Origin: Paraglaciecola arctica BSs20135
Lineage (GTDB): Bacteria > Pseudomonadota > Gammaproteobacteria > Enterobacterales > Alteromonadaceae
NCBI RefSeq assembly: GCF_000314995.1
Contig: NZ_BAEO01000062.1
Span: 1-64,000 of the forward strand
DNA length: 64,000 bases
Reading direction: 5' to 3'
Part shown: positions 4,690 through 22,038 of the stretch, one piece after another
Numbering within the stretch: the first letter of the stretch is position 1
Layout of the letters: every line of letters starts with the position of its first letter
Position numbers and translations under genes: made by a program
Notes under the pieces: model-generated
The model's input: only the letters and a program-made list of their open reading frames with translations
What the model was told of the DNA's origin: nothing
The model's database searches: none

Positions 4690-6798
4690 ATGAAGTTAAC
4701 TAAAATTACTGCAGCATTAACGCTTGCATTTGCCATGGCAGGTTGTACAGAACAGGCTACCGATAAATATTTAGAAGCAGAAAAACAAAAATCTGAATTA
4801 GTAGAAAGTCACTCGCAACAGAATAAAACTGAGGACGTTTCATTTAAATGGCAGGCAGAACGTTTTGCGGATATTCGGATCTTGCGTTATCAAGTGCCTG
4901 GCTTTGAAGAGTTAGCCTTAGAAACCAAAGAGTTATTGTTTTATTTATATAAAGCTGCGCTTTCAGGTAGGGACATGACATGGGACCAAAACTATAAATA
5001 TAACTTAACGGTTCGCCATACATTAGAAGCTATTATTGCCGATTACTCAGGTGATAAAACCACTGATGAGTTTGCTAAATTCATCGAATATTCCAAGCTA
5101 GTTTGGTTTTCTAACGGGATCCATCATCATTACATGTCAGCTAAAATTATGCCTGAATTTAGTGCCGAGTCATTTGCGCTTTATGTTAATGATGTAGCGG
5201 ATAAAGGAAACCTGCCATTAAATGAGCAGCAGAATGTTGAGCAGTTACTTAGCTTACTTACTCCTATCATGTTTGATCCAAAGATTGCTCCTAAAATGGT
5301 GGATCAATCAGCAGGTATTGACAATATTGTTGCCTCTTCGGTTAACTATTATGAAGGTGTTACAGAAGCAGAAGTTACCGAGTTTTATAAAAACAAAACC
5401 AATGTTGATGAAAAGCGCAAAGTGTCATGGGGGCTCAACTCAAAACTCACTAAAACTGATGGTCAGTTAGTTGAGCAAGTTTGGAAAGTGGGTGGCATGT
5501 ATGACAAGTCTATTACTGAGATAGTGCAGTGGTTAGATAAAGCAGCAACCGTAGCCGAAAATGCACAACAGAAAAAAGCCTTAACCTTGCTTGCTAAATA
5601 TTACCGCTCTGGTGATCTGAAAGATTTTGATGATTACTCTATTGAGTGGGTTAAAGACGTTAATTCTGACGTAGATGTTGTAAATGGTTTTATTGAAGTA
5701 TATGACGACCCATTAGCATACCGTGGTTCATTTGAGTCTGTGGTTTCGGTCAAAGATCATCATGCGACAAAAGTTATTTCAAAGATTGCAGCACAAGCAC
5801 AATGGTTTGAAGATAATTCGCCATTAATTGAAGCCCACAAGAAAAAAGAAGTAAAAGGTATAACAGGTAAAGCGATTACTGTGGTTGTTGAATCAGGCGA
5901 CGCTTCACCATCAACACCTATCGGCATTAACTTACCTAATGCCAACTGGATCCGCGCTGAACATGGCTCTAAATCAGTGAGCTTAACCAATATTGTTGAT
6001 GCCTATGATAATGTCAAAGGAGGCTCTTTAGCTGAATTTGCATGGGATGAAGCCGAGTTAAAACGTGGTAAAGAATTTGGACCTTTAGCCTCACATTTGT
6101 TAACCGACTTACATGAAGTGATTGGACATGCTTCAGGACAAATCAACCCAGGAGTTGGCACGCCTAAAGAAACCTTAAAACAGTATTCTTCTGCACTAGA
6201 AGAAGGCCGCGCAGATTTAGTGGCTTTGTATTATCTGATGGACGAAAAACTTATTGAACTTGGTATTATGCCAAGTTTAGAAACAGGTAAGGCTGCATAC
6301 GATAGTTACATTCGCAATGGCATGATGTTGCAACTTCGCCGTTTGAAGAAAGGCGAAGTCATTGAAGAGGCCCATATGCGAAACCGTCAACTGGTTGCAA
6401 GTTGGGTGTTTGAAAAAGGTGCCACAGAAAACGTTATTGAAAAACGTGTTCGTGATGGTAAAACATATTTTTTCGTCAATGATTACATTAAGTTACGTGG
6501 CTTGTTTGGTGATTTATTACGTGAGCTGCAACGCATTAAATCCGAAGGTGACTTTGCTTCAGGTCAGGCCTTAATAGAAAACTATGCAGTTAAAGTTAAT
6601 GACGACATTCATCAAGAAGTATTAGCAAGATATGAAAAATTGGATATTGCACCTTATTCAGGGTTTATAAACCCTAAACTGGAAGCTGTATATCAAGACG
6701 GAAAAATCATCGATGTTACCATTAGCTATCCTGATGATTTCCAACAACAAATGATGGAATACGCTGAAGAATATCAATTGTTACCTGTAATCAATTAA
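4690..6798 (+). CDS. Dipeptidyl-peptidase III-like zinc peptidase (M49), lipoprotein
   Basis: A 702-residue member of peptidase family M49, which removes dipeptides from peptide N-termini. HEVIGH at residues 475-480 is the family's unusual six-residue zinc motif HExxGH. EEGRAD at 504-509 supplies the third zinc ligand (Glu). Residues 1-19 form a lipoprotein signal with lipobox AMAGC (Cys19), so the enzyme should be anchored in the periplasm or outer membrane, unlike the cytosolic eukaryotic enzymes. The length matches M49 proteins of marine bacteria and Bacteroidetes. It is a single-gene unit. Its likely role is digestion of imported oligopeptides. Confidence 0.92.
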   Translation: MKLTKITAALTLAFAMAGCTEQATDKYLEAEKQKSELVESHSQQNKTEDVSFKWQAERFADIRILRYQVPGFEELALETKELLFYLYKAALSGRDMTWDQNYKYNLTVRHTLEAIIADYSGDKTTDEFAKFIEYSKLVWFSNGIHHHYMSAKIMPEFSAESFALYVNDVADKGNLPLNEQQNVEQLLSLLTPIMFDPKIAPKMVDQSAGIDNIVASSVNYYEGVTEAEVTEFYKNKTNVDEKRKVSWGLNSKLTKTDGQLVEQVWKVGGMYDKSITEIVQWLDKAATVAENAQQKKALTLLAKYYRSGDLKDFDDYSIEWVKDVNSDVDVVNGFIEVYDDPLAYRGSFESVVSVKDHHATKVISKIAAQAQWFEDNSPLIEAHKKKEVKGITGKAITVVVESGDASPSTPIGINLPNANWIRAEHGSKSVSLTNIVDAYDNVKGGSLAEFAWDEAELKRGKEFGPLASHLLTDLHEVIGHASGQINPGVGTPKETLKQYSSALEEGRADLVALYYLMDEKLIELGIMPSLETGKAAYDSYIRNGMMLQLRRLKKGEVIEEAHMRNRQLVASWVFEKGATENVIEKRVRDGKTYFFVNDYIKLRGLFGDLLRELQRIKSEGDFASGQALIENYAVKVNDDIHQEVLARYEKLDIAPYSGFINPKLEAVYQDGKIIDVTISYPDDFQQQMMEYAEEYQLLPVIN

Positions 6799-7380: not shown

Positions 7381-10300
7381 ATGTTTAACCTGACACATAA
7401 TTCAAAAAAGAAGTGGTTAGCTTCTTTTGCACTTATTACCAGTGTTGGCGTTGCTGTTGCAGCAAGCGTTAGTTTTTCTGATGATTTTTCAAATGATGTT
7501 TCAATTGACACGGTAAAAACCACGGCCAATTTATCGACTGAAGAGCAAGCAGTATATTTAGCTGGATCACAACCGCTACATAGATTACCCGACGAAAATA
7601 TTGCAGGAGAAGACTTAGGCACTGAGACCGAAAGTACATGGGGGCTCGCCTTTGGGGATGTAAATCGTGACGGCTACTTAGACTTGGTGACTGGCAATTT
7701 AGGACAGCCCAATAAAGTATATATTTATGACAGTAGTAACGGTAATTTTGCAGCAACAGGCACAAATATAGGTAGCGAGTCAGATGCTAGCTATGATGTC
7801 GTTTTAGCTGATGTAGATAAAGATGGCGACCTTGACCTAGTGGTTGGTAATTATGGTCAAACCAATAAGTTATATATTTATGATAGTAGCACTAACAGTT
7901 TTGCAGCAACAGGCACAGATATTGGCAATGACACCGATAATTCATGGGGACTAGCTTTAGGAGATGTGGATGGTGACGGCGACCTTGATGTCGTGGCCGC
8001 GAATAAAGGTCAAACCAATAAATTATATCTTAATGATGGGACTGGCAGCTTTACAACAGGCGCAGGTACAAACATAGGTAGTGATACAGATAATACCCAG
8101 TCTATCGCCTTAGGGGATGTAGATGGTGATGGTGACCTTGATCTAGTGATAGGTAATGAAGGTCAAACTAATAAATTATACCTTAATGATGGAAGTGGTA
8201 ATTTTTCGACTACAGGTACCGCTATAAGTAGTGATTTGGATGATACCGTTTTTAGCTCATTAGAGGACTTCGATGGTGATGGTGATCTTGATTTAATGAC
8301 AGCTAATTATGGTACAAGCCATAAGTTGTATCTTAATAACGGCAATGGTGTTTTTGATACCGGCACTGCTATTGGCAGTGGTACGGATGATAGCTACGCT
8401 GGCTTCGTAGCTGATGTGGATAATGATGGCGACCTTGATTTAATTACAGGTAATGATAATCAAACCAATACATTATACCTTAATGATGGCCGCGGTGGTT
8501 TTGCAACCGGCTCAGCGATAGGTAGTGATACAGATAATTCTCGTGCTTTAGCATTTTCAGATGTAGACCATGACGGTGGCCTCGATCTAGTGGTAGCTAA
8601 TGACAATCAAACCAATAAACTTTACCAACAAGATGACCAAGGTGATTTTACTGCTACAGGAATAGATATTAGTAGTGAAACAAATAATTCCCATAATTTA
8701 GCTTGGGGGGATGTAGATAATGATAATGATCTGGATCTTGTTGTAGGTAATAGTGGTGTGAACAGACTTTACCTTAGCGATGGCAAGGGCCGCTTTACAG
8801 CAGGTACCAATATTGGTAGCGAAACGGACATAAGTGAAGCTCCAATTCTAGTTGATATAGATGCTGATGGTGATTTAGATCTGGTAGTCGGCAATATCAG
8901 TCAAACCAACAAAGTATATTTCAATGATGGCACGGGTAGCTTTTCCGCTACAGGCACTGCTATTGGTTCTGAAACTGATAATACTTGGGCTATCGCTTTG
9001 GCTGATTTAGATGGAGATGGAGATATCGATCTTGTAGCAGGTAATCAAGGTCAAACGAACAAAGTTTACCTTAACGATGGCAGTGGTAGTTTTGGAGCAA
9101 GCTCTAGCATAGGCACTGATACGGATGATACCTATGACATAACCTTAGTGGATATTAATGGTGACGGCCACCTAGATGCGGTAGCGGGTAATTTTTTACA
9201 AACCACTAAGGTCTACCTGAATGATGGTAATGCTGTTTTTGCGGCAGGTTCAGATTTAAACACGGATGCGGGCAAAACTCGACGTGTTGTTTTTGCTGAT
9301 TTAGATAATGACGGTGATATGGATTTGGTGGCAGGGAATGATAGTGCTGTTAATAAATTTTATCTTAATGATGGCAGCGGTAATTTCCCCGCAGCGGGCA
9401 CCGATCTTGGTAGTGAGCCTGACGACCGCATAGGTCTTGCGCTCGCTGACATGGATAATGATGGTGATATCGATGTAGTAGCAGGTAATTATAATAAAAC
9501 CAACAAACTCTACCTCAATGATGGTAATGCTGGTTTTTCTGCCACAGGTATAGAAATTGGCAGTGAAACGGATCAAACTTTTGCTATAGCTTTGGTCGAT
9601 TATGACGGTGATGGTGATATTGATGTGTTATCAGCGAACTCCAATCAAACCAATAAACTTTACCTTAATAACGGTAACACTAGTTTTACGAATACCGGTA
9701 CAGACTTCGGCAGTGATTCAGGTCAATCTGTTACAGCAGCATATGCTGATATCGATAATGATGGTGATATCGACCTCGTGGTCGGTAATGAATCTCAAAC
9801 TAATCAACTCTTCCTTAATGATGGTAGTGGTAATTTTCCTGCCGTTGGTACTGATATTGGTAATGATACAGATAATACCCAGTCTATCGCCTTAGCTGAT
9901 GTCGATAATGATGGTGATCTGGATGTGATTGCTGGTAATTTATCAGAAATCAATAAACTCTACCTCAATGACGGCAGTGGTGGTTTTTCTGCCACAGGCA
10001 CTGATATTGGTAGTGAAAGCGATAGCACCACAGTGATTGCTGTTGGCGATGTTAATAGCGATGGGCACATTGACTTAGTGGTAGGTAATTCCGGCGCTGT
10101 AGAAAATAAGCTTTACCTTAATGACGGCAGTGGCGGTTTTTCAGCTACAGGTAGCAATATAGGTAGTGAAGCGGATAGTACTTATTCAATTGCCCTACAG
10201 GATATTAATAAAGATGGCTTTTTAGATATTATAGTCGGAAATGAACAAACAACAAATAAGCGTTACCTTAACGATGGTAATGGCGGTTTTCCAGCAACAG

Positions 10301-11844
10301 GTACCAACATTGGTATTCAAACCGATGATACCGCGTCTCTTTCTTTTGCTGATATCGATAATAATGGCACCGTGGATATGATAACGGGTAATTATTTTCA
10401 ATCAAATAGACTTTATTTCAATGATGGTAATGGTAATTTTCCAGCTGTACCTACTGATATTGGTAGTGAATTAGATAGTACCCGTACTGTCATTTTTGCT
10501 GATGTTGATAAGGATGGCGATAAAGACATCTTGGTCAGTAATCAATCGAACACTAATAAAATTTATTACAATAATGGACAAGGTGCTTTTCCCGCAATAG
10601 GCGTTGATATAAACAGCGTGGCTGATAATACCCGTGCGATGGTATTAGCAGATATAGATAAAGATGGCGACTTGGACTTGATTGCATTTAATCGTGGACT
10701 AGCCAATAAACTGTATAAGCAGCTTAGCCATAATATTCATGCCAACCAGATTTACTCAAATAAAGTTAATGGCAGTGTGACAGAGGTTGTTGATGTTACG
10801 TTAACGGCTACCGCTACAATAAATACAGCCGATACTCGCAATACGTCTATTGATTATTATGTAACCAATGATGGCGGTGCGAAATGGCACAGCGTTAAAT
10901 CTGGTGCTAATTTCATTTTCCCTGAAACTGGCACCGATGATATACGCTGGCGTGCACAATTGAATTCAATATCACCTGTTATTACCCCTGAATTGTCAAA
11001 TGTTGAATTGTTGTTTACAGCAGTGCCTAAAATTACAGGTGCTACTTACGATATTCTTGTTGGTAGATTAACAATAACTGGAATTAATTTTGCTGATAAA
11101 ACCGGTGCAAATAATGATATTGATGCTTCAATGTTTAGCTTCACAGGTGAAGCCAGCGCTAGTTATACATTAACGGACACGGCTGATGTTGACATAACTA
11201 GCTCAACAGAATTTACGCTAACACTCAGTGCAACAGATAAAGTAGCAATTAATGCGTTAATCAATAAAAACGGCTCAGTTTCAAATGACGGTACAGTTTA
11301 TAACTTAGCAGCGGCGGAGGATTGGAATACAGGCGCTAAAGCTAGCTTAATCATTGCAGATAGTACAACGCCAATCCCAGCAAGTAATCTTAATCAAGCA
11401 CCAACTATTGGCGGAGTGCCTGTAGTAACTGCCTCAAAAGGTGTAAATTACAGCTTCATCCCAACATTTGCGGATAGTAATACAGGTGATACAAAAACCT
11501 TTAGCATCACTAACAGACCTGATTGGGCAACGTTTAATACTGGTAACGGTGCATTAACAGGTACACCAGATAATGGTGATATTGGTACAACCACTAATAT
11601 CGTTATTACAGTAACCGATAGTGGAGGCTTAAGTGCAAGCCTAGCAGCTTTTAATATCAAGGTTTCTTCAACAGCTGTAACACCAACACCTGTAACACCT
11701 CCAGCCCCTCCACCACCATCATCTGTTACTACTACCACAGTGACAGTGACTAAAGGTTCAAAAGGCGGCAGTATGGGAATAATTCTTATCGCCTTAATGG
11801 GGCTAGTGTTATATCGTGTACGTCGACAGCAACAGATGAGCTAA
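7381..11844 (+). CDS. Giant FG-GAP/VCBS repeat surface protein with GlyGly-CTERM tail
   Basis: A 1487-residue exported protein. Residues about 10-32 are a signal peptide (WLASFALITSVGVAVAASV). From about residue 75 to 1120 I count 20 complete and one final partial repeat of about 50 residues. Each carries DxDxDGxxDL (a calcium-binding FG-GAP/VCBS loop), then GNxxQTNKLYLNDGSGxF and a linker GTxIGSxTDxT. Twenty-one blades would make three seven-bladed propellers (inference). Next come a beta-rich module (about 1120-1330), a putative Ig/cadherin-like domain starting NQAPTIGGVPVVTASKG (about 1340-1430), a Thr/Pro linker, then SKGGSMGIILIALMGLVLYR with basic residues after it. That ending fits the GlyGly-CTERM signal processed by rhombosortase and linked to type II secretion. 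The protein probably mediates adhesion or binds glycans at the cell surface. A GC-poor promoter region with no clear regulator site precedes it. Confidence 0.9.
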   Translation: MFNLTHNSKKKWLASFALITSVGVAVAASVSFSDDFSNDVSIDTVKTTANLSTEEQAVYLAGSQPLHRLPDENIAGEDLGTETESTWGLAFGDVNRDGYLDLVTGNLGQPNKVYIYDSSNGNFAATGTNIGSESDASYDVVLADVDKDGDLDLVVGNYGQTNKLYIYDSSTNSFAATGTDIGNDTDNSWGLALGDVDGDGDLDVVAANKGQTNKLYLNDGTGSFTTGAGTNIGSDTDNTQSIALGDVDGDGDLDLVIGNEGQTNKLYLNDGSGNFSTTGTAISSDLDDTVFSSLEDFDGDGDLDLMTANYGTSHKLYLNNGNGVFDTGTAIGSGTDDSYAGFVADVDNDGDLDLITGNDNQTNTLYLNDGRGGFATGSAIGSDTDNSRALAFSDVDHDGGLDLVVANDNQTNKLYQQDDQGDFTATGIDISSETNNSHNLAWGDVDNDNDLDLVVGNSGVNRLYLSDGKGRFTAGTNIGSETDISEAPILVDIDADGDLDLVVGNISQTNKVYFNDGTGSFSATGTAIGSETDNTWAIALADLDGDGDIDLVAGNQGQTNKVYLNDGSGSFGASSSIGTDTDDTYDITLVDINGDGHLDAVAGNFLQTTKVYLNDGNAVFAAGSDLNTDAGKTRRVVFADLDNDGDMDLVAGNDSAVNKFYLNDGSGNFPAAGTDLGSEPDDRIGLALADMDNDGDIDVVAGNYNKTNKLYLNDGNAGFSATGIEIGSETDQTFAIALVDYDGDGDIDVLSANSNQTNKLYLNNGNTSFTNTGTDFGSDSGQSVTAAYADIDNDGDIDLVVGNESQTNQLFLNDGSGNFPAVGTDIGNDTDNTQSIALADVDNDGDLDVIAGNLSEINKLYLNDGSGGFSATGTDIGSESDSTTVIAVGDVNSDGHIDLVVGNSGAVENKLYLNDGSGGFSATGSNIGSEADSTYSIALQDINKDGFLDIIVGNEQTTNKRYLNDGNGGFPATGTNIGIQTDDTASLSFADIDNNGTVDMITGNYFQSNRLYFNDGNGNFPAVPTDIGSELDSTRTVIFADVDKDGDKDILVSNQSNTNKIYYNNGQGAFPAIGVDINSVADNTRAMVLADIDKDGDLDLIAFNRGLANKLYKQLSHNIHANQIYSNKVNGSVTEVVDVTLTATATINTADTRNTSIDYYVTNDGGAKWHSVKSGANFIFPETGTDDIRWRAQLNSISPVITPELSNVELLFTAVPKITGATYDILVGRLTITGINFADKTGANNDIDASMFSFTGEASASYTLTDTADVDITSSTEFTLTLSATDKVAINALINKNGSVSNDGTVYNLAAAEDWNTGAKASLIIADSTTPIPASNLNQAPTIGGVPVVTASKGVNYSFIPTFADSNTGDTKTFSITNRPDWATFNTGNGALTGTPDNGDIGTTTNIVITVTDSGGLSASLAAFNIKVSSTAVTPTPVTPPAPPPPSSVTTTTVTVTKGSKGGSMGIILIALMGLVLYRVRRQQQMS

Positions 11845-15402: not shown

Positions 15403-18400
15403 TCAGTTGTTTGCTAATTGGTTTTTAATTTTTGCTACTAGTTCGAGCATCGCTTGATTAAAGCGCGTTAATTGTTCTGCGAATTCTTGATTGTTTTGTT
15501 GGGTTTTATTATAGATAGTTGATTCTATTGATCTTGTCAGTTTTGCTAAGTTATCTGCTCCAATATAAGTCAGAGTCGGGAGTAGGTCGTGGGTAATTTT
15601 ATAAATGTCTTGATAAGCGCCATTTTCGATTAGTGTGTTCAAGGTTTTTAACGTGGGCTCCTTTTCGACGAAGTCTTTTAACATACTGACAAAGGTTTCT
15701 TCGTCTACAAATAGTTTTTGCATGGCCTTGGCTTGATCCATTATCAACAGTGTTTCTATGGGGTTTATCGCTGATTTGTCCACTGCGCTTAACTTAGATT
15801 GTTGTGAGTTTTGAGTTATTACCTGCGGACTAGCGAGTAAAATCTCTGCTAGAACCTGATAAAAATATTCAGGTTCAATAGGCTTGGTGATATGTGCTGT
15901 CATACCTGCTGCAGAGCTCTTTTGTAAATCCTGATTCATGGCGTTGGCCGTCATGGCGATGATTGGTAAGTTGCATTTTAATTCATTACGCAGTGTTAAT
16001 GTCGCTGTTAGCCCATCCATCTCAGGCATCTGTACGTCCATTAAAATACAATCAAAATTGCCTTGATGTTTATATGCCTCTATCACCTCTAAACCATTTT
16101 CAACTAAAATGACCTCTGCTTTAGTATATTTTAAGAAACCTAATGCCACTTTTTGATTCAGCTTGTTATCTTCTGCCAACAAAATACGTTTAGTGCTTAA
16201 ATCAGGAACATTTTTCATTTCTTTAAAACTAGGAGATGAGTCGGTTTTCAGATTAAAAGCGACTTCTTGTAATCTATTGATTAACTCGCTGGCACTAAAG
16301 GGTTTTTCGATAAAATCTTTGATGCCTAATTGTTTGGCTTGTTGTTGCATGTGGGAAAAATCAAAAGCAGACAACATAATGATTTTGGGTTTGTTGAGGC
16401 TAAATTCTTGATTGATAATGGCGGCTACTTGCAGGCCGTCGATATCCGGCATCTTCCAATCTAATATCAATACATCATAAGGCTGGAGTTTAGCCGTAGC
16501 TAAACGCAATTTGTTTAAGGTTTCTTGCCCACCGTCTGCTAAATCTGACTTAATGTTTGCTTGTAGTAGAATTTCGGCTATGACTTGGCGTGACAAATTA
16601 ATATCGTCTGCGACTAATACTTTAAGGTTAGATAGTTGTTTCGAAGGGGAGCTGATGTGTTGATTTTTTTCCTCTTTAAGTGGCAAGGTAAAATAAAAAG
16701 TGGTGCCAGAACCAAGCTGACTTTCCACCCAGATTTTACCCCCCATTAACTCAACAAGTTGTTTGCAAATAGCTAGGCCTAATCCGGTGCCGCCGTATCT
16801 GCGAGAAATAGACTCATCTCCTTGAGCGAAAGACTCAAACAATCCATCCATTTGATTTTGAGTTAGTCCAATGCCGGTATCTTTGACCGCAAACTCAAGT
16901 AAAACCCCTTGCTCAGTAGCTTTGTTTTTAACTGTGACATAAACCAAACCATCATCAGTAAATTTCACTGCATTACTGAGTAAATTAACTAACACTTGTT
17001 GTATGCGTAACCCGTCGCCTTGCAAATATAAAGGCACATCACGGGCAATATGCTGAATAAGTTCAATGTTTTTTTGATGTGCACTTATCAATTGTAAGCG
17101 AATGGCCTGACTGACAGTTTTATCCAGCTGGAAACTAGTGGTTGTAATATCCAACTTACCCGCTTCAATTTTAGAAAAGTCCAAAATGTCGTTAATGACA
17201 CCCAACAAGGAACATGAGGCTTCATCAATTTGCCGCAAATTGGTCATGTCGTCAGGATTATCTGCGTTTCTTTGCATTAATTTGGTCAAACCAGAAATAG
17301 CATTGATAGGGGTACGAATTTCGTGGCTCATTCGGGCTAGAAAGTCCGACTTAGCTTGAGTGGCTTGTTTGAGTTCTTGAGAATAGCGATTAAGTTGTGC
17401 ACGTTGCTTGCGAGTACGAATTAACAAAGCAACGACTAACAGCAGGGCAGCAAATACAGTCAGGGTAAAATACAGCTGATATCGATTATTCTGATCTTGG
17501 ATCAGGCTTTTTTGTAGCTGTAATTCGTTTTCTTTATGTAATAGTTTAATTTCTTTTTCTTTTTCAAACACATTAAGGCGAACATTATTTATGGCCAACA
17601 TTTGTGCTTGTTTCTGGTTAAAACTTTGTTTGTATAATGTGTTGTATTGTTTTAAAAAATTAAGTTGTGAGTTGGTATCACCCGTTAAATCGGTTAATTC
17701 AATCAGTTTTTCTAAAATCTGTAAAAATTGATTTTTGTCGTTTCTAAGCACTTCATTTTCAAAACTTTTTTTCAATTCATCGATAGCATTATTGGTATTG
17801 CCTTGTTGCTGATAAATGTCAGCTATGAGTAATAGTCGTGGTACTTCATTATATAAATAATCCACTTTTCTATCGGCTTCAATGGATTGACTGATCCTTT
17901 TTAGCCCTTCTTCAAAATTGCCTTGTTCAACATTTATCTGCGCGATTAGAAGATAAACCACCCCAATAAAAGGGTAATCAACTTGCTGTAATATTTTTTC
18001 TGCGATCGTAGCGTTGACTGTTGCATCCTGCAGTTGCTCTAACTGGGATTGGGCGAATGCAATGCGAAAATATGCTAGTCCTTCATAGGCTTTATTATTA
18101 TGTTGTTGCGCCGCAGCAAGTAGTCTGTATGAATTTTGCAAAGTGCCCTGATAATTCTCAAGGGAATTGTATACGTTGGATATTGAACTATATACACCCA
18201 GCACTTTGTCACTTTGCAGCTCACTATATAGTGAAAACGCCTTATTTAATGCTTCTAACGCCGCTCCATATTCTCCTATTGTATCTAATACCGCGCCCTC
18301 GATTCGAAAAGACTCGGCTAATTGTAGGTTATTATCAGAAGTTTCAGCTTTGGATCGCGCCAGTAACAATCTTTGGTAGGCGACCTCTATGTTTTGTTTT

Positions 18401-18660
18401 AATAAACTTGCATATGCCCACACGTTTAAAAACGCACTTTCATGGTAATCATCTGGATTTTTTATAAAATAGTTACGCAAATATTCAATTCTGACAGGCA
18501 CAGATGATTCATTAGCTTGAATTTGTGTCCTTAAAGACTCAATTTGATCGCTAATACTTTGATTAGTTTCGGCATGAAGGTAAGTTGCTATTAAACAACA
18601 GGTTAAAAGGCTGCAGAAAAAAGCAGCCTTCAAACCCCTTGTGAATGTCATTAAGATCAC
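15403..18660 (-). CDS. TPR hybrid histidine kinase with two receivers and HPt domain
   Basis: A 1085-residue phosphorelay sensor of the inner membrane. In order: signal/TM segment (8-28); tetratricopeptide-like helical repeats (about 45-345), predicted periplasmic; coiled coil (355-395); TM (396-414); HisKA with MSHEIRTP (His446); HATPase with DTGIGL and GGTGLGLAICK (about 555-670); receiver 1 with phospho-Asp in VLILDWKMPD (about 690-810); receiver 2 with CILMDVQMPEMDG (about 830-945); and HPt around ITHDLLPTLTYIGA (His1024). The full relay is thus on one chain, as in ArcB/BarA. The coding start (GTG 18660, or ATG 18651) lies only three bases past the stop of the borosin precursor gene, indicating co-transcription and probable translational coupling. 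No response regulator with an output domain is adjacent, so the final partner is unknown. A periplasmic peptide is an attractive but unproven ligand. Confidence 0.92.
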   Translation of the reverse strand: MILMTFTRGLKAAFFCSLLTCCLIATYLHAETNQSISDQIESLRTQIQANESSVPVRIEYLRNYFIKNPDDYHESAFLNVWAYASLLKQNIEVAYQRLLLARSKAETSDNNLQLAESFRIEGAVLDTIGEYGAALEALNKAFSLYSELQSDKVLGVYSSISNVYNSLENYQGTLQNSYRLLAAAQQHNNKAYEGLAYFRIAFAQSQLEQLQDATVNATIAEKILQQVDYPFIGVVYLLIAQINVEQGNFEEGLKRISQSIEADRKVDYLYNEVPRLLLIADIYQQQGNTNNAIDELKKSFENEVLRNDKNQFLQILEKLIELTDLTGDTNSQLNFLKQYNTLYKQSFNQKQAQMLAINNVRLNVFEKEKEIKLLHKENELQLQKSLIQDQNNRYQLYFTLTVFAALLLVVALLIRTRKQRAQLNRYSQELKQATQAKSDFLARMSHEIRTPINAISGLTKLMQRNADNPDDMTNLRQIDEASCSLLGVINDILDFSKIEAGKLDITTTSFQLDKTVSQAIRLQLISAHQKNIELIQHIARDVPLYLQGDGLRIQQVLVNLLSNAVKFTDDGLVYVTVKNKATEQGVLLEFAVKDTGIGLTQNQMDGLFESFAQGDESISRRYGGTGLGLAICKQLVELMGGKIWVESQLGSGTTFYFTLPLKEEKNQHISSPSKQLSNLKVLVADDINLSRQVIAEILLQANIKSDLADGGQETLNKLRLATAKLQPYDVLILDWKMPDIDGLQVAAIINQEFSLNKPKIIMLSAFDFSHMQQQAKQLGIKDFIEKPFSASELINRLQEVAFNLKTDSSPSFKEMKNVPDLSTKRILLAEDNKLNQKVALGFLKYTKAEVILVENGLEVIEAYKHQGNFDCILMDVQMPEMDGLTATLTLRNELKCNLPIIAMTANAMNQDLQKSSAAGMTAHITKPIEPEYFYQVLAEILLASPQVITQNSQQSKLSAVDKSAINPIETLLIMDQAKAMQKLFVDEETFVSMLKDFVEKEPTLKTLNTLIENGAYQDIYKITHDLLPTLTYIGADNLAKLTRSIESTIYNKTQQNNQEFAEQLTRFNQAMLELVAKIKNQLANN

Positions 18661-18663
18661 GGC

Positions 18664-18870
18664 TTAATATGAATGGACTTTTATGTCTTTATTTAAATTT
18701 TCAAATTTGCTCTTCACAGTATCCCAATCTTTATTCTTGATAATCTTTACATCCGCATCTGCTAGGCCGTAGCTGGTGGCTGTTGCAACTGGGTCTTTTA
18801 AGTAAGCCTCCTTAAGTTCAGCATTACTATCTAGTTCTTCTAAAAAATCTACGAGAGACTTTGTCATCAT
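18664..18870 (-). CDS. Split-borosin precursor peptide (SonA-like)
   Basis: A 68-residue peptide encoded directly downstream of a borosin-type methyltransferase. Residues 4-50 are helical (LVDFLEELDSNAELKEAYL, DPVATATSYGLADADVKII). The pattern F..L..d..L...Y..DP.A....GL...D is shared by LigA-fold and Nif11-like leaders and by the borosin-binding domain of split borosin precursors. The short C-terminal part, about residues 58-68 (NLNKDIKVHSY), is the probable core. Alternating Ile63 and Val65 there would be candidate N-methylation sites, by analogy with SonA of Shewanella oneidensis (from memory). AGGA lies five bases before the first of two ATGs. No protease, exporter or maturation gene is adjacent, as in other split borosin loci. 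The function of the methylated product is unknown. Confidence 0.8.
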   Translation of the reverse strand: MMTKSLVDFLEELDSNAELKEAYLKDPVATATSYGLADADVKIIKNKDWDTVKSKFENLNKDIKVHSY

Positions 18871-18911
18871 GTTTTCCTTTTAGGTTGAGTAAAGTAATTA
18901 CAGTTGTAAAG

Positions 18912-19730
18912 TTATTGGTTTCGATAACCCATAACTTGTTCTTGGGTCAAGCCAAGTTTTGTTAAACGCCCCTGATGATAATCAGGTAAGCCCAGCGAAG
19001 GCACAACTAGGGTTGAAATCAGTGTGGGCTGACAGTTTGTTAATTCATATAATGGGAAACGTTCAATTCTAGGGCCATACAATGGCAGTGTGGCTGCTTC
19101 ATAGAGAATGATTTCGTGCTCTGCAGGATACATTTTCATTAAAATTTCTTGATAAAGCTCTAATCCTGCTTTGCAGTGATCTGCATCCAACACCCCTAGG
19201 GAAGCTTCTCCAGCCAAGCCTATTTGCCAGATAATTTGGGTCATATGGGGGTCGAGCTTATAATCGCGAAACAAAAATTGGGTGGCTTCATAAGACTGAC
19301 AGCCATAATGAGCCGGATCGATACCTAAATCAGCGATAAGACAATCTTCGGCAGAAATACCGGGCAACATTTCAGCCCGCAATCCTAGTTCTTTTACTTT
19401 TTTAATTGCCCCATGGGAAGGATTAACAAATACACCAGGGTGGCCATAAAAAGCCGCACAGACTTTTTGCCCTGCTTTTACCGCGTCTACTATACGATCT
19501 GTCATCTGTTGGTAAGTAATAGCGCGAGATTTGCCTGCTTGGTACAGGTCATCTAATTGCACAGTATTGGGGTTAAGTTTTTTAACCACATTCTCGCCAA
19601 TTTTGTTGCTAATACCCATAAACACTATATCTGCGTTTTCAATATAACTCTGGGCCAATAGCGTCATTTGGCCGGCAACACTGATACCTGTGCCCACTAC
19701 TACCAGAGAGCCTAGTTGTTTTGTTGACAT
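18912..19730 (-). CDS. Borosin alpha-N-methyltransferase (SonM-like, tetrapyrrole-methylase fold)
   Basis: A 272-residue SAM-dependent enzyme of the tetrapyrrole methylase superfamily, of the branch that methylates backbone amides of a peptide. SAM-site blocks: VVVGTGIS (10-17), FYGHPGVFVNPSH (94-106) and MLPGISAEDCLIADLGIDP (121-139). YGHPGVFV, SAEDCL and the following GCQSYEAT are characteristic of OphMA/SonM-type enzymes rather than of cobalamin or siroheme methylases. Tyr63, Arg69, Tyr73 and Tyr95 align, with a constant offset of three as I recall, with active-site Tyr66, Arg72, Tyr76 and Tyr98 of OphMA. The enzyme ends after the catalytic domain, so the substrate is a separate peptide: the next gene, 41 bases away. 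I chose the ATG at 19730 (AAGGA five bases upstream) over an in-frame start 12 codons earlier. Confidence 0.9.
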   Translation of the reverse strand: MSTKQLGSLVVVGTGISVAGQMTLLAQSYIENADIVFMGISNKIGENVVKKLNPNTVQLDDLYQAGKSRAITYQQMTDRIVDAVKAGQKVCAAFYGHPGVFVNPSHGAIKKVKELGLRAEMLPGISAEDCLIADLGIDPAHYGCQSYEATQFLFRDYKLDPHMTQIIWQIGLAGEASLGVLDADHCKAGLELYQEILMKMYPAEHEIILYEAATLPLYGPRIERFPLYELTNCQPTLISTLVVPSLGLPDYHQGRLTKLGLTQEQVMGYRNQ

Positions 19731-19956: not shown

Positions 19957-22038
19957 TTATTTGAAATGGTTGACTGAAAAATCAAGCAGCTGTTGGGCGG
20001 GTATAGGTTTACTAAAATAATACCCTTGGACAAAGTTACAGCTTAGTTCTTCTAATAACTTCAGTTGCTCCTCAGTCTCAACACCTTCAGCAACAACTGT
20101 TAGTCCTAAACTATGTGACATGGTAATAATGGCTTTAACTAAATCACAATCTGCCTTGTTTAATGTTATGCCATGAATAAAGCTGCGATCTATTTTCAGT
20201 ACATCAAAAGGATATTGTCTTAAATAACTTATAGATGAATAGCCTGTACCAAAATCATCCATTGATAATTTTATGCCTAAATCATTAATTTCAGCTACGG
20301 CTTCATGGATATAAGATTGAGCGCTCATTAATACCCCCTCAGTAATTTCAAGTTCTAAACTTTCAGGGTTAACATTTTCCTCAGTAAGGGTATTTTTGAG
20401 GAAACTGAGTAACTCATTATCTCTGAATTGACGAGGAGATAAATTGACAGAGATTGTGTATTTTTGATGTTGAATATTTTGCCATTGATTTAAAAAACAT
20501 AGTGCTTGTTTAATAACATATTTGCCAATAGGCACAATGAGTCCAGTGTGTTCAGCAATTGGAATAAACTCATCTGGCGTTACATTGCCTAGCGCTAAAT
20601 TATGCCAGCGCAGCAAAGCTTCGGCACCAATAATTTCTTTGTTTTTTACATCCAATTGAGGTTGGTAATATATTTCAAATTCATTACGCTCTAACGCTCC
20701 GCGCATCTGCTCTTCAATTTCCATACGGCGTTGAATAATAATATTCATTTCATTAGTAAAAAATGAATAGGTATTGCGGCCTAGCGCTTTCGCTTGATAC
20801 ATTGCAGTATCGGCATTTCGTAATAAGTCAGATGAACTACTACCATTTTCCGGATACATAGCAACACCAATACTTGTTGTTAGTATTAATTCTCTGCCAT
20901 CAATTTTAAAAGGCTTTCTAAACGTTTCCAGTAAATTTTCAGTAATGGTTAAGGCATCATTATGCTCAGTGAGACCTCTTAGTAAGACAATAAACTCATC
21001 CCCACCTAAACGACCAACAGTATCTTCTTTTCGTAATACTTGCTGTAATCTATGGGCTGCTTTGATTAGAAGCTTATCGCCTATTTCATGTCCTAATGTG
21101 TCATTTACTTTTTTAAAGTCGTCTATATCAAGAAAAAGTACCGCAGCTTTTTCAATATTTCTTTCCGCTTCAATTAGCATTTGTGATAAACGGTCAAGAG
21201 CTAAAAAACGATTGGGTAATGAAGTTAGATTGTCAAAGTAAGCTTGATGGCGAATGAGTTCGGCAGACTTGTACTGTTCGGTAATATCACGAATAATTGC
21301 CACAACTTGTTTATATTTTGAGAAATGGTTAATTCTTGCCTCAAAATATACCAGCCCATGGGGCATTGTGAGTTCATATTCAAAACTTATAGTCCCTTTT
21401 TCCTGTAATAATTTAGCAATATGAGTATTAAACTTGTTAGTTACTTTCGCAGGTAATATATCGGCTATATTTTTACCTACCAGTTGATTGGGTGGGACAT
21501 AAAGATTTTTTGTATTGCTCGCATGATAATCGAGGATTGTTCCATCATCAGTCATCAAAAAAAATAAATCGGGGATGGCCTCAAATATAGTTTCAAGCAT
21601 ATTCTCTTTAAATACAGCTTGTTCTTGAGCTTGTCTAACGTCGGTTAAATCTACATCAATACAATACATTTGTTTGGTATTATATTGATTTGTAAACATT
21701 ACATGGCTAGAAAAAACTGATACATCATGACCGTTTTTATTGCGTAAGGTGATCTCAGTTGCAGGAATTTCTACCTCATTTTCTATCCAGTCACTGTGCG
21801 CTGCAATAACAACGTCGCGGATAGGTTCAGGAATAATCAGATCTTCTAGTTTTTGTCCTATAGCCTCTTTTTTACTATAACCATAAAGTAATTCGCTACC
21901 TTCATTCCAATAGATAACGCGTCTTTGTTCATCGTATCCCTGCACAGAAATAGCATTCACTGCATCAAATAATTGGTGTAGTGGATCATTGATAACATAT
22001 TGATGGATTAACATATTTTCAACTTTGCTTGATTTCAT
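19957..22038 (-). CDS. PAS-PAS-GGDEF-EAL cyclic di-GMP protein
   Basis: A 693-residue cytoplasmic signalling protein for c-di-GMP turnover. Domains: PAS 1 (about 20-135; YWNEGSELLYGYSKKEAIGQ), PAS 2 (about 145-262), GGDEF (270-430; intact GGDEF at 345-349) and EAL (440-690; EALLRWHN with Glu473, DDFGTGYSS and KIDRSFIHG). Both catalytic signatures look intact, so it could make and/or break c-di-GMP; in this architecture the phosphodiesterase often dominates. No TM segment is seen. PAS domains may sense redox state or a small ligand; no cofactor residue is evident. It is transcribed in the same direction as the borosin operon but 226 bases upstream of it, with the CAGTACTG region between, so it is probably a separate unit. 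Confidence 0.93.
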   Translation of the reverse strand: MKSSKVENMLIHQYVINDPLHQLFDAVNAISVQGYDEQRRVIYWNEGSELLYGYSKKEAIGQKLEDLIIPEPIRDVVIAAHSDWIENEVEIPATEITLRNKNGHDVSVFSSHVMFTNQYNTKQMYCIDVDLTDVRQAQEQAVFKENMLETIFEAIPDLFFLMTDDGTILDYHASNTKNLYVPPNQLVGKNIADILPAKVTNKFNTHIAKLLQEKGTISFEYELTMPHGLVYFEARINHFSKYKQVVAIIRDITEQYKSAELIRHQAYFDNLTSLPNRFLALDRLSQMLIEAERNIEKAAVLFLDIDDFKKVNDTLGHEIGDKLLIKAAHRLQQVLRKEDTVGRLGGDEFIVLLRGLTEHNDALTITENLLETFRKPFKIDGRELILTTSIGVAMYPENGSSSSDLLRNADTAMYQAKALGRNTYSFFTNEMNIIIQRRMEIEEQMRGALERNEFEIYYQPQLDVKNKEIIGAEALLRWHNLALGNVTPDEFIPIAEHTGLIVPIGKYVIKQALCFLNQWQNIQHQKYTISVNLSPRQFRDNELLSFLKNTLTEENVNPESLELEITEGVLMSAQSYIHEAVAEINDLGIKLSMDDFGTGYSSISYLRQYPFDVLKIDRSFIHGITLNKADCDLVKAIITMSHSLGLTVVAEGVETEEQLKLLEELSCNFVQGYYFSKPIPAQQLLDFSVNHFK

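What the first reader, a model, noticed from the sequence alone, without database searches (positions are those of the whole stretch)
15403..19730. Split borosin RiPP locus fused in one operon with a giant TPR hybrid sensor kinase
Seen: a methyltransferase with OphMA/SonM-type blocks (YGHPGVFV, LPGISAEDC, GCQSYEAT), a 68-residue helical precursor 41 bases downstream, then a 1085-residue TPR-TM-HisKA-HATPase-REC-REC-HPt kinase whose start lies 3 bases past the precursor stop. Known: borosins are backbone N-methylated peptides, and split forms occur in Shewanella. Inference: tight coupling of a precursor peptide and a sensor kinase suggests that the modified peptide, or its state, is sensed. That would be a RiPP acting as a signal or as a subunit of a phosphorelay. 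I do not know of a described borosin-kinase operon.
Basis: partly seen in the sequence, partly recalled or inferred. Interest (0 to 1): 0.88.

Follow-up and report, generated by a model that had tools for sequence, protein, structure and literature searches.

The report
Methylated-peptide gene beside TPR sensor kinase
A marine bacterium carries a three-gene unit that probably makes a backbone-methylated peptide and, right beside it, a membrane sensor whose outer part resembles known peptide-pheromone receptors; the same pairing recurs in many related bacteria with different signalling outputs, so the peptide is probably a signal, though no experiment has shown this.

Summary
In detail: on the minus strand, a SonM-type N-methyltransferase (MT, 18912-19730), a 68-aa SonA-type precursor (18664-18870) and a TPR-TM-hybrid histidine kinase (15403-18660) lie in one tight run. 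Of 142 non-redundant MTs examined, 135 lie within 6 kb of a homologous TPR sensor: 45 with kinase output, 84 with diguanylate cyclase (GGDEF), 6 without a recognised output or cut by the contig end. Kinase-type and GGDEF-type sensors are one family (E 6e-43). A SonM-SonA pair (92% and 87% identical to the solved chains) is followed 1 nt later by TPR-TM-GGDEF. One locus has one MT and three precursor-sensor pairs. In three of four sets, precursor divergence tracks the sensor more than the output. The predicted sensor fold is close to Rap/NprR pheromone receptors, among other TPR proteins. Best reading: the peptide is its neighbouring sensor's ligand. Methylation, export, processing and binding are unproven. 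A GGDEF link is partly in print; no kinase link was found in the papers searched.

The parts
18912..19730 (-). SonM-type split-borosin backbone alpha-N-methyltransferase, 272 aa (ATG start; the longest ORF starts at TTG 19766)
   Evidence: PDB SonM E=3e-68, OphMA about 1e-52; Pfam TP_methylase; six of seven SonM residues checked are kept
18664..18870 (-). SonA-type precursor peptide, 68 aa; helical borosin-binding region then C-terminal ...IKVHSY (putative core; its match to the SonA core is by eye)
   Evidence: SonA is best PDB match, E=0.0015; Pfam LigA 22.2 bits, below cut-off; aligned orthologues in 15 of 15 loci
15403..18660 (-). TPR-TM-HisKA-HATPase-REC-REC-(HPt) hybrid sensor kinase; GTG 18660 or ATG 18651 start
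   Evidence: Pfam and NCBIfam; orthologue in 15 of 15 loci, its frame broken in L015
17398..18651 (-). Sensor part of the kinase (residues 1-418): N-terminal hydrophobic segment, TPR superhelix, long helix through the membrane segment; this is the part kept across kinase and GGDEF forms
   Evidence: AlphaFold2 mean pLDDT 94.4; hhalign to the GGDEF-linked sensors E=6e-43

Best explanation
The three genes are a self-contained peptide-signalling unit. The methyltransferase puts N-methyl groups on the backbone near the C-terminus of the precursor (inferred from SonM/SonA). A mature peptide, trimmed by an unknown peptidase, reaches the periplasm by an unknown route (inferred). It binds the TPR superhelix of the neighbouring sensor, much as Phr-type peptides bind Rap/NprR (inferred from fold, gene pairing and correlated divergence). 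Binding changes the long helix that runs from the TPR domain through the membrane (predicted), and this sets the activity of the fused output: here a hybrid kinase with two receiver domains and a likely HPt; elsewhere a kinase without HPt, or a diguanylate cyclase. Shown here: gene content, conserved linkage, homology of the sensors, swapped outputs, predicted fold. Not shown: methylation, export, binding, output.
For: 15 of 15 named loci keep MT-precursor-kinase on one strand. 135 of 142 non-redundant MT genes (154 scanned) have a homologous TPR sensor within 6 kb, 132 on the same strand, 3 on the other; by locus 128 of 135. In 147 family genomes 76 of 77 MT matches have a sensor match within 6 kb; sensor matches lie within 6 kb of an MT in 63 of 74 at 150 bits or more, 18 of 29 at 75-150 bits and 0 of 27 at 57-75 bits. 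Kinase-type and GGDEF-type sensors align over 372 columns, E=6e-43; the sensors of L154 (kinase domain, cut by contig end) and L047 (GGDEF) match at 1.8e-75. L133, L148 and L149 keep a precursor-like ORF plus a TPR-TM protein with no output domain. L174 has one MT and three precursor-sensor pairs. Partial correlation precursor-sensor given MT and output: 0.18 (39 of 999 permutations reach it, n=33) and 0.18 (7 of 999, n=62) with identity distances; 0.71 (0 of 999, n=33) and 0.46 (0 of 999, n=62) with BLOSUM distances; precursor-output is near or below zero in those four. Rap/NprR pheromone receptors, LGN peptide complexes and AimR are among the top folds. N-terminal hydrophobic segment in 103 of 106 sensors; Cys pair in 64 of 64 GGDEF-type sensors.
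Against: No exporter or peptidase in the window's three genes, and 0 of 103 precursor-like ORFs carry a hydrophobic segment in their first 40 residues, so how peptide and TPR domain meet across the inner membrane is open. A pre-set test found groove positions no better conserved than other positions (p=0.91). TPR solenoids match one another easily, and APPBP2, LGN and APC/C rank as high as or above Rap; no TPR sensor without a borosin link was modelled as a control. With identity distances the precursor also tracks the MT, and more strongly (0.44, 0.29), and the GGDEF SonA-like set (n=8) shows no precursor-sensor signal (0.14, 206 of 999). Sensor and precursor are both fast-evolving and adjacent, which could inflate the partial correlation. 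Sensors without MT exist (11 of 74 at 150 bits or more). The four class-level MTs outside the order lack a TPR sensor (L136-L139). One kinase flavour has a further REC-GGDEF-like gene after the kinase (L074, L177; by eye), so the unit is not always three genes.
Confidence: 0.55

Rival explanations
1. The sensor is the regulator of the borosin pathway, not its receptor: it detects an outside cue and switches the output that controls borosin production; the peptide acts on other cells or on metals or competitors.
For: Biosynthetic clusters often carry their own sensor kinase (general knowledge). Sensors without MT or precursor in the fetched stretch exist (L078, L158-L164, L166), so the sensor can do something alone.
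Against: I noticed no transcription factor common to the neighbourhoods I read, though this was not tested systematically and one flavour has a REC-GGDEF-like gene; most outputs are GGDEF (84 of 135), which do not directly control one operon; several precursors each have their own sensor beside one MT (L174); precursor divergence tracks the sensor in three of four sets; TPR-TM proteins without output are kept.
Confidence: 0.2
2. The precursor, or the MT-precursor complex, acts in the cytoplasm as a protein regulator of the kinase or cyclase, with methylation as an intracellular state (for example reporting SAM level).
For: No export machinery in the three genes and a hydrophobic N-terminal segment in 0 of 103 precursor-like ORFs; SonM and SonA co-purify and crystallise as a complex (PMC8429565, passages).
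Against: What is kept with the precursor is the predicted periplasmic TPR part, while the cytoplasmic output swaps; precursor divergence does not track the output domain.
Confidence: 0.15
3. The TPR-TM protein is a chaperone, trafficking or immunity partner for the peptide, and the signalling domain reports its load.
For: TPR-TM proteins without any recognised output occur beside precursor-like ORFs in L133, L148 and L149; L143 has three such ORFs in a row with no strong TM segment in the one tested.
Against: The output motif is intact in most linked proteins: GG[DE]EF in 62 of 69 and the HExRxP-type motif in 36 of 37; the three precursor-sensor pairs in L174 all end in GGDEF.
Confidence: 0.08

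Closest known systems
Type IV split borosin SonM/SonA of Shewanella oneidensis MR-1 (PMC8429565, passages seen)
   Same: Discrete methyltransferase and LigA/BBD-type precursor, same order; six of seven SonM residues checked are kept. A close pair in L052 (243 of 263 and 62 of 71 residues identical to the solved SonM and SonA chains) is followed 1 nt later by a TPR-TM-GGDEF gene.
   Different: 46% MT identity, different C-terminus (IKVHSY against YLVISHGNGD); the partner sensor has a hybrid kinase output instead of GGDEF.
Borosin types drawn with a GGDEF domain (PMC11395268; Figure 1 legend and discussion read, figure not held)
   Same: Shows that others have seen a GGDEF domain in at least one borosin cluster type.
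   Different: Word finds in its main text gave 0 for kinase, sensor, TPR and diguanylate. Its sources for split types (Imani 2022, Cho 2022) are not held.
RRNPP peptide-pheromone receptors (Rap, NprR, AimR) of Gram-positive bacteria and their phages
   Different: Those receptors are cytoplasmic and lack a membrane segment (recalled); here an N-terminal signal-like segment and one TM helix put the TPR part outside, with kinase or GGDEF output.
RiPP signals sensed by histidine kinases (nisin-NisK, AIP-AgrC; recalled)
   Same: A modified ribosomal peptide sensed by a membrane kinase.
   Different: Gram-positive, unrelated modifications and sensors; no N-methylation or TPR (recalled).

Membership tests
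Type IV split borosin | Separate alpha-N-methyltransferase related to SonM/OphMA | tested here: met
   SonM E=3e-68, OphMA about 1e-52
Type IV split borosin | Catalytic and core-handling residues of SonM | tested here: met
   Y58, R67, Y71, F99, E146, W166 kept; Q178 aligned to V180 (residue roles from PMC8429565 passages)
Type IV split borosin | Separate precursor with SonA-like binding domain and C-terminal core | tested here: met
   SonA chains are the best PDB matches, E 0.0015-0.0027; Pfam LigA just below cut-off; the core itself is placed by eye
Type IV split borosin | Backbone N-methylation of the precursor | not testable with these tools
   needs MS/MS
Hybrid sensor histidine kinase | HisKA, HATPase_c and receiver domains | tested here: met
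   Pfam over cut-offs
Hybrid sensor histidine kinase | C-terminal HPt domain | tested here: inconclusive
   No Pfam Hpt hit in the window protein; BarA model aligned to residue 1056; Hpt hit in the homologue L074; the region is missing in L016 and L017, and in L015 the frame is broken
RRNPP receptors | TPR superhelix of Rap/NprR type | tested here: met
RRNPP receptors | Soluble cytoplasmic receptor without membrane segment (defining feature as recalled) | tested here: not met
   One strong hydrophobic segment from residue 393 and an N-terminal signal-like segment
RRNPP receptors | Direct peptide binding | not testable with these tools
   needs binding assay

The most novel reading that the evidence does not exclude
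Split borosins of this bacterial order are pheromones: backbone-N-methylated peptides read by cognate periplasmic TPR receptors with interchangeable kinase or c-di-GMP outputs, a Gram-negative, membrane-bound counterpart of Rap/NprR/AimR signalling. Tandem precursor-receptor pairs would give several channels served by one methyltransferase, and MT-less receptors would be eavesdroppers.
Probability: 0.4. Interest if true: 0.95.

Novelty: new variant of a known kind. Interest (0 to 1): 0.82.

Why it matters
The biological role of bacterial split borosins appears open: the 2021 SonM/SonA paper says that none of these pathways was yet tied to a final natural product (PMC8429565, passage; a 2023 paper recalled by title reports such a product but was not held). 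A conserved precursor-receptor pairing gives a direct, testable role, names a candidate receptor for each peptide, and would add backbone N-methylation to the chemistry of bacterial signals. It would also give ligands for a family of orphan TPR-TM kinases and diguanylate cyclases.

Tried and rejected
Groove conservation: pre-set TPR positions 2, 5, 9, 12, 13 (recalled as ligand-facing) were not better conserved than the rest (p=0.91); N76, Y80, R116 and N159 stand out only after the fact. Upstream GGDEF-EAL gene (19957-22038) and downstream phosphoesterase as further members: no close homologue in the fetched flanks of the 15 loci, some of which are short. Plain co-location without function: unlikely given. 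Universal rule for all borosins: rejected, because L036, L132, L136-L139 and L146 lack a TPR sensor within 6 kb; L136-L139 are all four class-level hits from outside the order.

Counting limits: 132 MT-selected regions (8 further regions and those were chosen otherwise and are not in this count) were fetched out of the matches, mostly from the best downward and spread over genera, not all of them; with the 15 loci these gave 154 MT genes, 142 after removing those 95% or more identical (135 loci). One search repeats with a strict rule (sensor score of 40 bits or more) and gives the same totals; the best sensor is downstream in 123 cases, upstream in 9, on the other strand in 3. The 6 without output are L039 (cut by contig end), L112 (a GGDEF protein follows), L133, L143, L148, L149. 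18 of 64 GGDEF-type sensors had no TPR_12 hit. The sensor searches scored at most 6 or 12 candidates a genome, so weak sensors can be missed. Precursors were picked by position; some picks are wrong (for example L040, L045). Of 110 loci with a picked precursor and sensor, the four sets use 33, 62 and 8 (20 is a subset of 33); 7 were not analysed. The hydrophobic-segment test used the first 60 residues of sensors but the first 40 of precursors. In L015 the MT and kinase frames are each broken.

Literature: 'borosin' is in 32 held papers, listing seen, 'split borosin' in 7; four papers were opened, by passages or sections. 'borosin' with 'histidine kinase' gave 1 paper, unrelated; with 'GGDEF' 1; 'backbone N-methyl' with 'diguanylate cyclase' 0; SonM/SonA terms, listing only; 'SO1480' 0; a four-term TPR/periplasmic/diguanylate cyclase/peptide-signal search 2, listing only; a last loose search was uninformative (5 of 6,371 shown, none on borosins). 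Imani 2022, Cho 2022 and Crone 2023 are not held, so whether they mention the kinase or the TPR sensor could not be checked.
Full report
What is there. On the minus strand three genes follow each other: a 272-aa methyltransferase (19730-18912), 41 nt later a 68-aa ORF (18870-18664), and 3 nt (GTG) or 12 nt (ATG) later a kinase of about 1085 aa ending at 15403. The methyltransferase is a SonM relative (PDB E 3e-68, 46% identity) with the SonM residues Y58, R67, Y71, F99, E146 and W166 kept and Q178 aligned to V180. The small ORF has SonA as its best PDB match (E 0.0015) and a sub-threshold LigA hit. The kinase has TPR, HisKA, HATPase_c and two REC domains by Pfam; its HPt is supported only by a BarA alignment and a motif. 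The genome is of a Paraglaciecola relative: G196, a same-genus genome, has a methyltransferase identical to an earlier locus, by its numbers and contig length that of P. hydrolytica S66, L005.

Recurrence. A scan of named genomes gave 15 loci in Paraglaciecola and Alteromonas; 15 of 15 have methyltransferase, precursor and kinase in the same order and strand, with broken methyltransferase and kinase frames in L015. The window's flanking genes have no close homologue in the fetched flanks. A sensor-only model (residues 1-418) searched in 295 family genomes gave 32 matches. Comparing its listing with the methyltransferase listing by eye, 22 of 32 lie directly by a methyltransferase, and 19 of the 21 of 75 bits or more do. 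The two exceptions are L078 (no precursor or MT found) and L079 (SonA-like precursor and kinase, no MT found; part of that stretch reads N).

The wider pattern. I fetched 132 methyltransferase-selected regions from family, order and class searches. With the named loci these hold 154 methyltransferase genes, 142 after removing those 95% or more identical, in 135 loci. 135 of 142 have a TPR sensor within 6 kb (128 of 135 loci), 132 on the same strand: 45 with a kinase output, 84 with GGDEF, 6 with none found or cut by the contig end. The median gap from methyltransferase to a same-strand downstream sensor is 334.5 nt over 118 cases. The 7 without are L036, L132, L136-L139 and L146; L136-L139 are all four class-level hits outside the order. 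In a set not chosen by me (147 family genomes, all 77 methyltransferase matches in them), 76 of 77 have a sensor match within 6 kb; sensor matches have a methyltransferase within 6 kb in 63 of 74 cases at 150 bits or more, 18 of 29 at 75-150 and 0 of 27 at 57-75. The sensor model was built in part from these same loci, so the second comparison is not independent; the first rests on loci found by methyltransferase alone. For scale, the own genome has 77 GGDEF and 76 HATPase matches but two sensor matches of this family at E 1e-15 or better (12 candidates scored). Related genomes are not independent samples.

One sensor family, several outputs. Pfam finds TPR_12 in 35 of 36 kinase-type sensors and in 46 of 64 GGDEF-type sensors. 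Profile comparison aligns the two sets over 372 columns (E 6e-43). L154 has a kinase catalytic domain, cut by the contig end, behind a sensor that matches the GGDEF-linked sensor of L047 at 1.8e-75. L133, L148 and L149 keep a TPR protein of 385-393 aa with a TM segment near its end and no output domain, next to a precursor-like reading frame. What is kept beside the precursor is therefore the TPR part. Precursors come in several flavours: SonA-like; 'PAEDDE'-tailed, often with a GNAT-like neighbour (both judged by eye); and a third ending in ...NIGRIG... In L052 a methyltransferase and precursor 92% and 87% identical to the solved SonM and SonA chains have the TPR-TM-GGDEF gene 1 nt after the precursor. 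The window's own genome holds a second module of the GGDEF kind (L059).

Pairing. In L174 one methyltransferase sits with three precursor genes, each directly upstream of its own TPR-TM-GGDEF gene, plus a fourth such sensor. L175 has two precursor-like ORFs. In L170 and L176 the precursor-sensor pair comes first and the methyltransferase (a fragment in L176) after. In L165 a precursor and two sensors occur without a methyltransferase in the stretch (all). Distance matrices of the four parts were compared. With identity-based distances, precursor-sensor partial correlations given methyltransferase and output were 0.18 (39 of 999 permutations as high; n=33) and 0.18 (7 of 999; n=62), precursor-output 0.02 and -0.17, and precursor-methyltransferase 0.44 and 0.29. 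With BLOSUM distances precursor-sensor was 0.71, 0.72 (subset of 20) and 0.46, each 0 of 999, and 0.14 (206 of 999) in the GGDEF SonA-like set of 8; precursor-output was -0.05, -0.11, -0.08 and 0.18; precursor-methyltransferase 0.14, 0.13, 0.28 and 0.44. Splitting the precursor of the 33 gave 0.61 with the sensor for both leader and C-terminal part, so the core is not singled out. The direction holds in three of four sets, one of them a subset of another; the size depends on the distance used, and shared fast evolution and adjacency could produce part of it.

Sensor anatomy. The window sensor is predicted with mean pLDDT 94.4 as a TPR superhelix capped by one 92-residue helix (326-417) that runs through the membrane segment; the GGDEF-type sensor has the same plan (95.1). 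Of 106 linked sensors 103 have an N-terminal hydrophobic segment and 82 have more K+R after than before the membrane segment; in the 64 aligned GGDEF-type sensors two cysteines are invariant; 0 of 103 precursor-like ORFs have a hydrophobic segment in their first 40 residues. This points to a periplasmic TPR domain. High-ranking PDB neighbours include LGN complexes, Rap with pheromone peptides, NprR, and for the GGDEF type also AimR; APPBP2 and APC/C subunits score as high or higher. Fold similarity among TPR solenoids is easily had, no unlinked sensor was modelled as a control, and a pre-set groove-conservation test was negative (p=0.91).

How it most likely works. The methyltransferase modifies the precursor C-terminus; a product of it is the ligand of the adjacent sensor; the TPR domain passes the state through the long helix to a kinase or cyclase. 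Steps shown: gene content, linkage, sensor homology, output swapping, predicted fold. Steps inferred: methylation, trimming, export, binding, direction of the output. The weakest point is how a precursor without a signal segment reaches a periplasmic receptor. A cytoplasmic regulator role and a mere pathway-regulator role remain possible.

Against what is known. It is a member of the split-borosin kind on the sequence features tested. It works, if the reading is right, like Rap/NprR signalling, but it is not a member of that family: the receptor is membrane-bound. GGDEF appears in a published borosin figure (legend read), so that part of the link is not new; the three papers most likely to discuss it were not held. 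In the searches listed under Tried and rejected I found no paper that connects borosins with TPR sensors or histidine kinases; only four papers were opened.

Noticed in passing
L174 (G135:C7:67000-85000): One methyltransferase with three tandem precursor / TPR-TM-GGDEF pairs and a fourth such sensor: a natural test bed for cognate specificity.
   Followed up: partly
L079:5998-9443: SonA-like precursor plus TPR hybrid kinase with no methyltransferase found in the stretch, nor listed for that genome at the search threshold; part of the stretch reads N.
   Followed up: partly
L158-L164, L166, L078: Solo TPR-TM sensors of this family without precursor or methyltransferase found in the fetched stretch, possible eavesdroppers or sensors of other ligands.
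   Followed up: partly
L133:4127-5287, L148:6068-7249, L149:6062-7219, L143: TPR proteins next to borosin genes with no output domain; three TPR-like ORFs in a row in L143, the one tested lacking a strong TM segment.
   Followed up: partly
L074, L086, L092, L101, L177: A different precursor flavour (MDNLSRFY...) with a TPR hybrid kinase; a REC-GGDEF-like gene follows in L074 and L177 (by eye).
   Followed up: no
L052:5822-6037: The SonA-like precursor gives phmmer hits to TAL-effector repeats (summed E to 1e-27, no single stretch passing), hinting at a shared helix-turn motif.
   Followed up: no
L125:5169-6584, L146:600-2516: Unusually long methyltransferase ORFs (471 and 638 aa), perhaps fusions.
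   Followed up: no
window 24541-56218: Carbohydrate-use genes: TonB-dependent receptors, a sulfatase-modifying-factor domain, SSF symporter, GH36 melibiase, GH97; also, outside this range, a giant FG-GAP repeat protein at 7381-11844 and an M49 peptidase at 4690-6798 (10 window ORFs scanned).
   Followed up: no
window 19957-22038: PAS-GGDEF-EAL protein directly upstream of the methyltransferase on the same strand; no close homologue beside the unit in the 15 named loci.
   Followed up: partly
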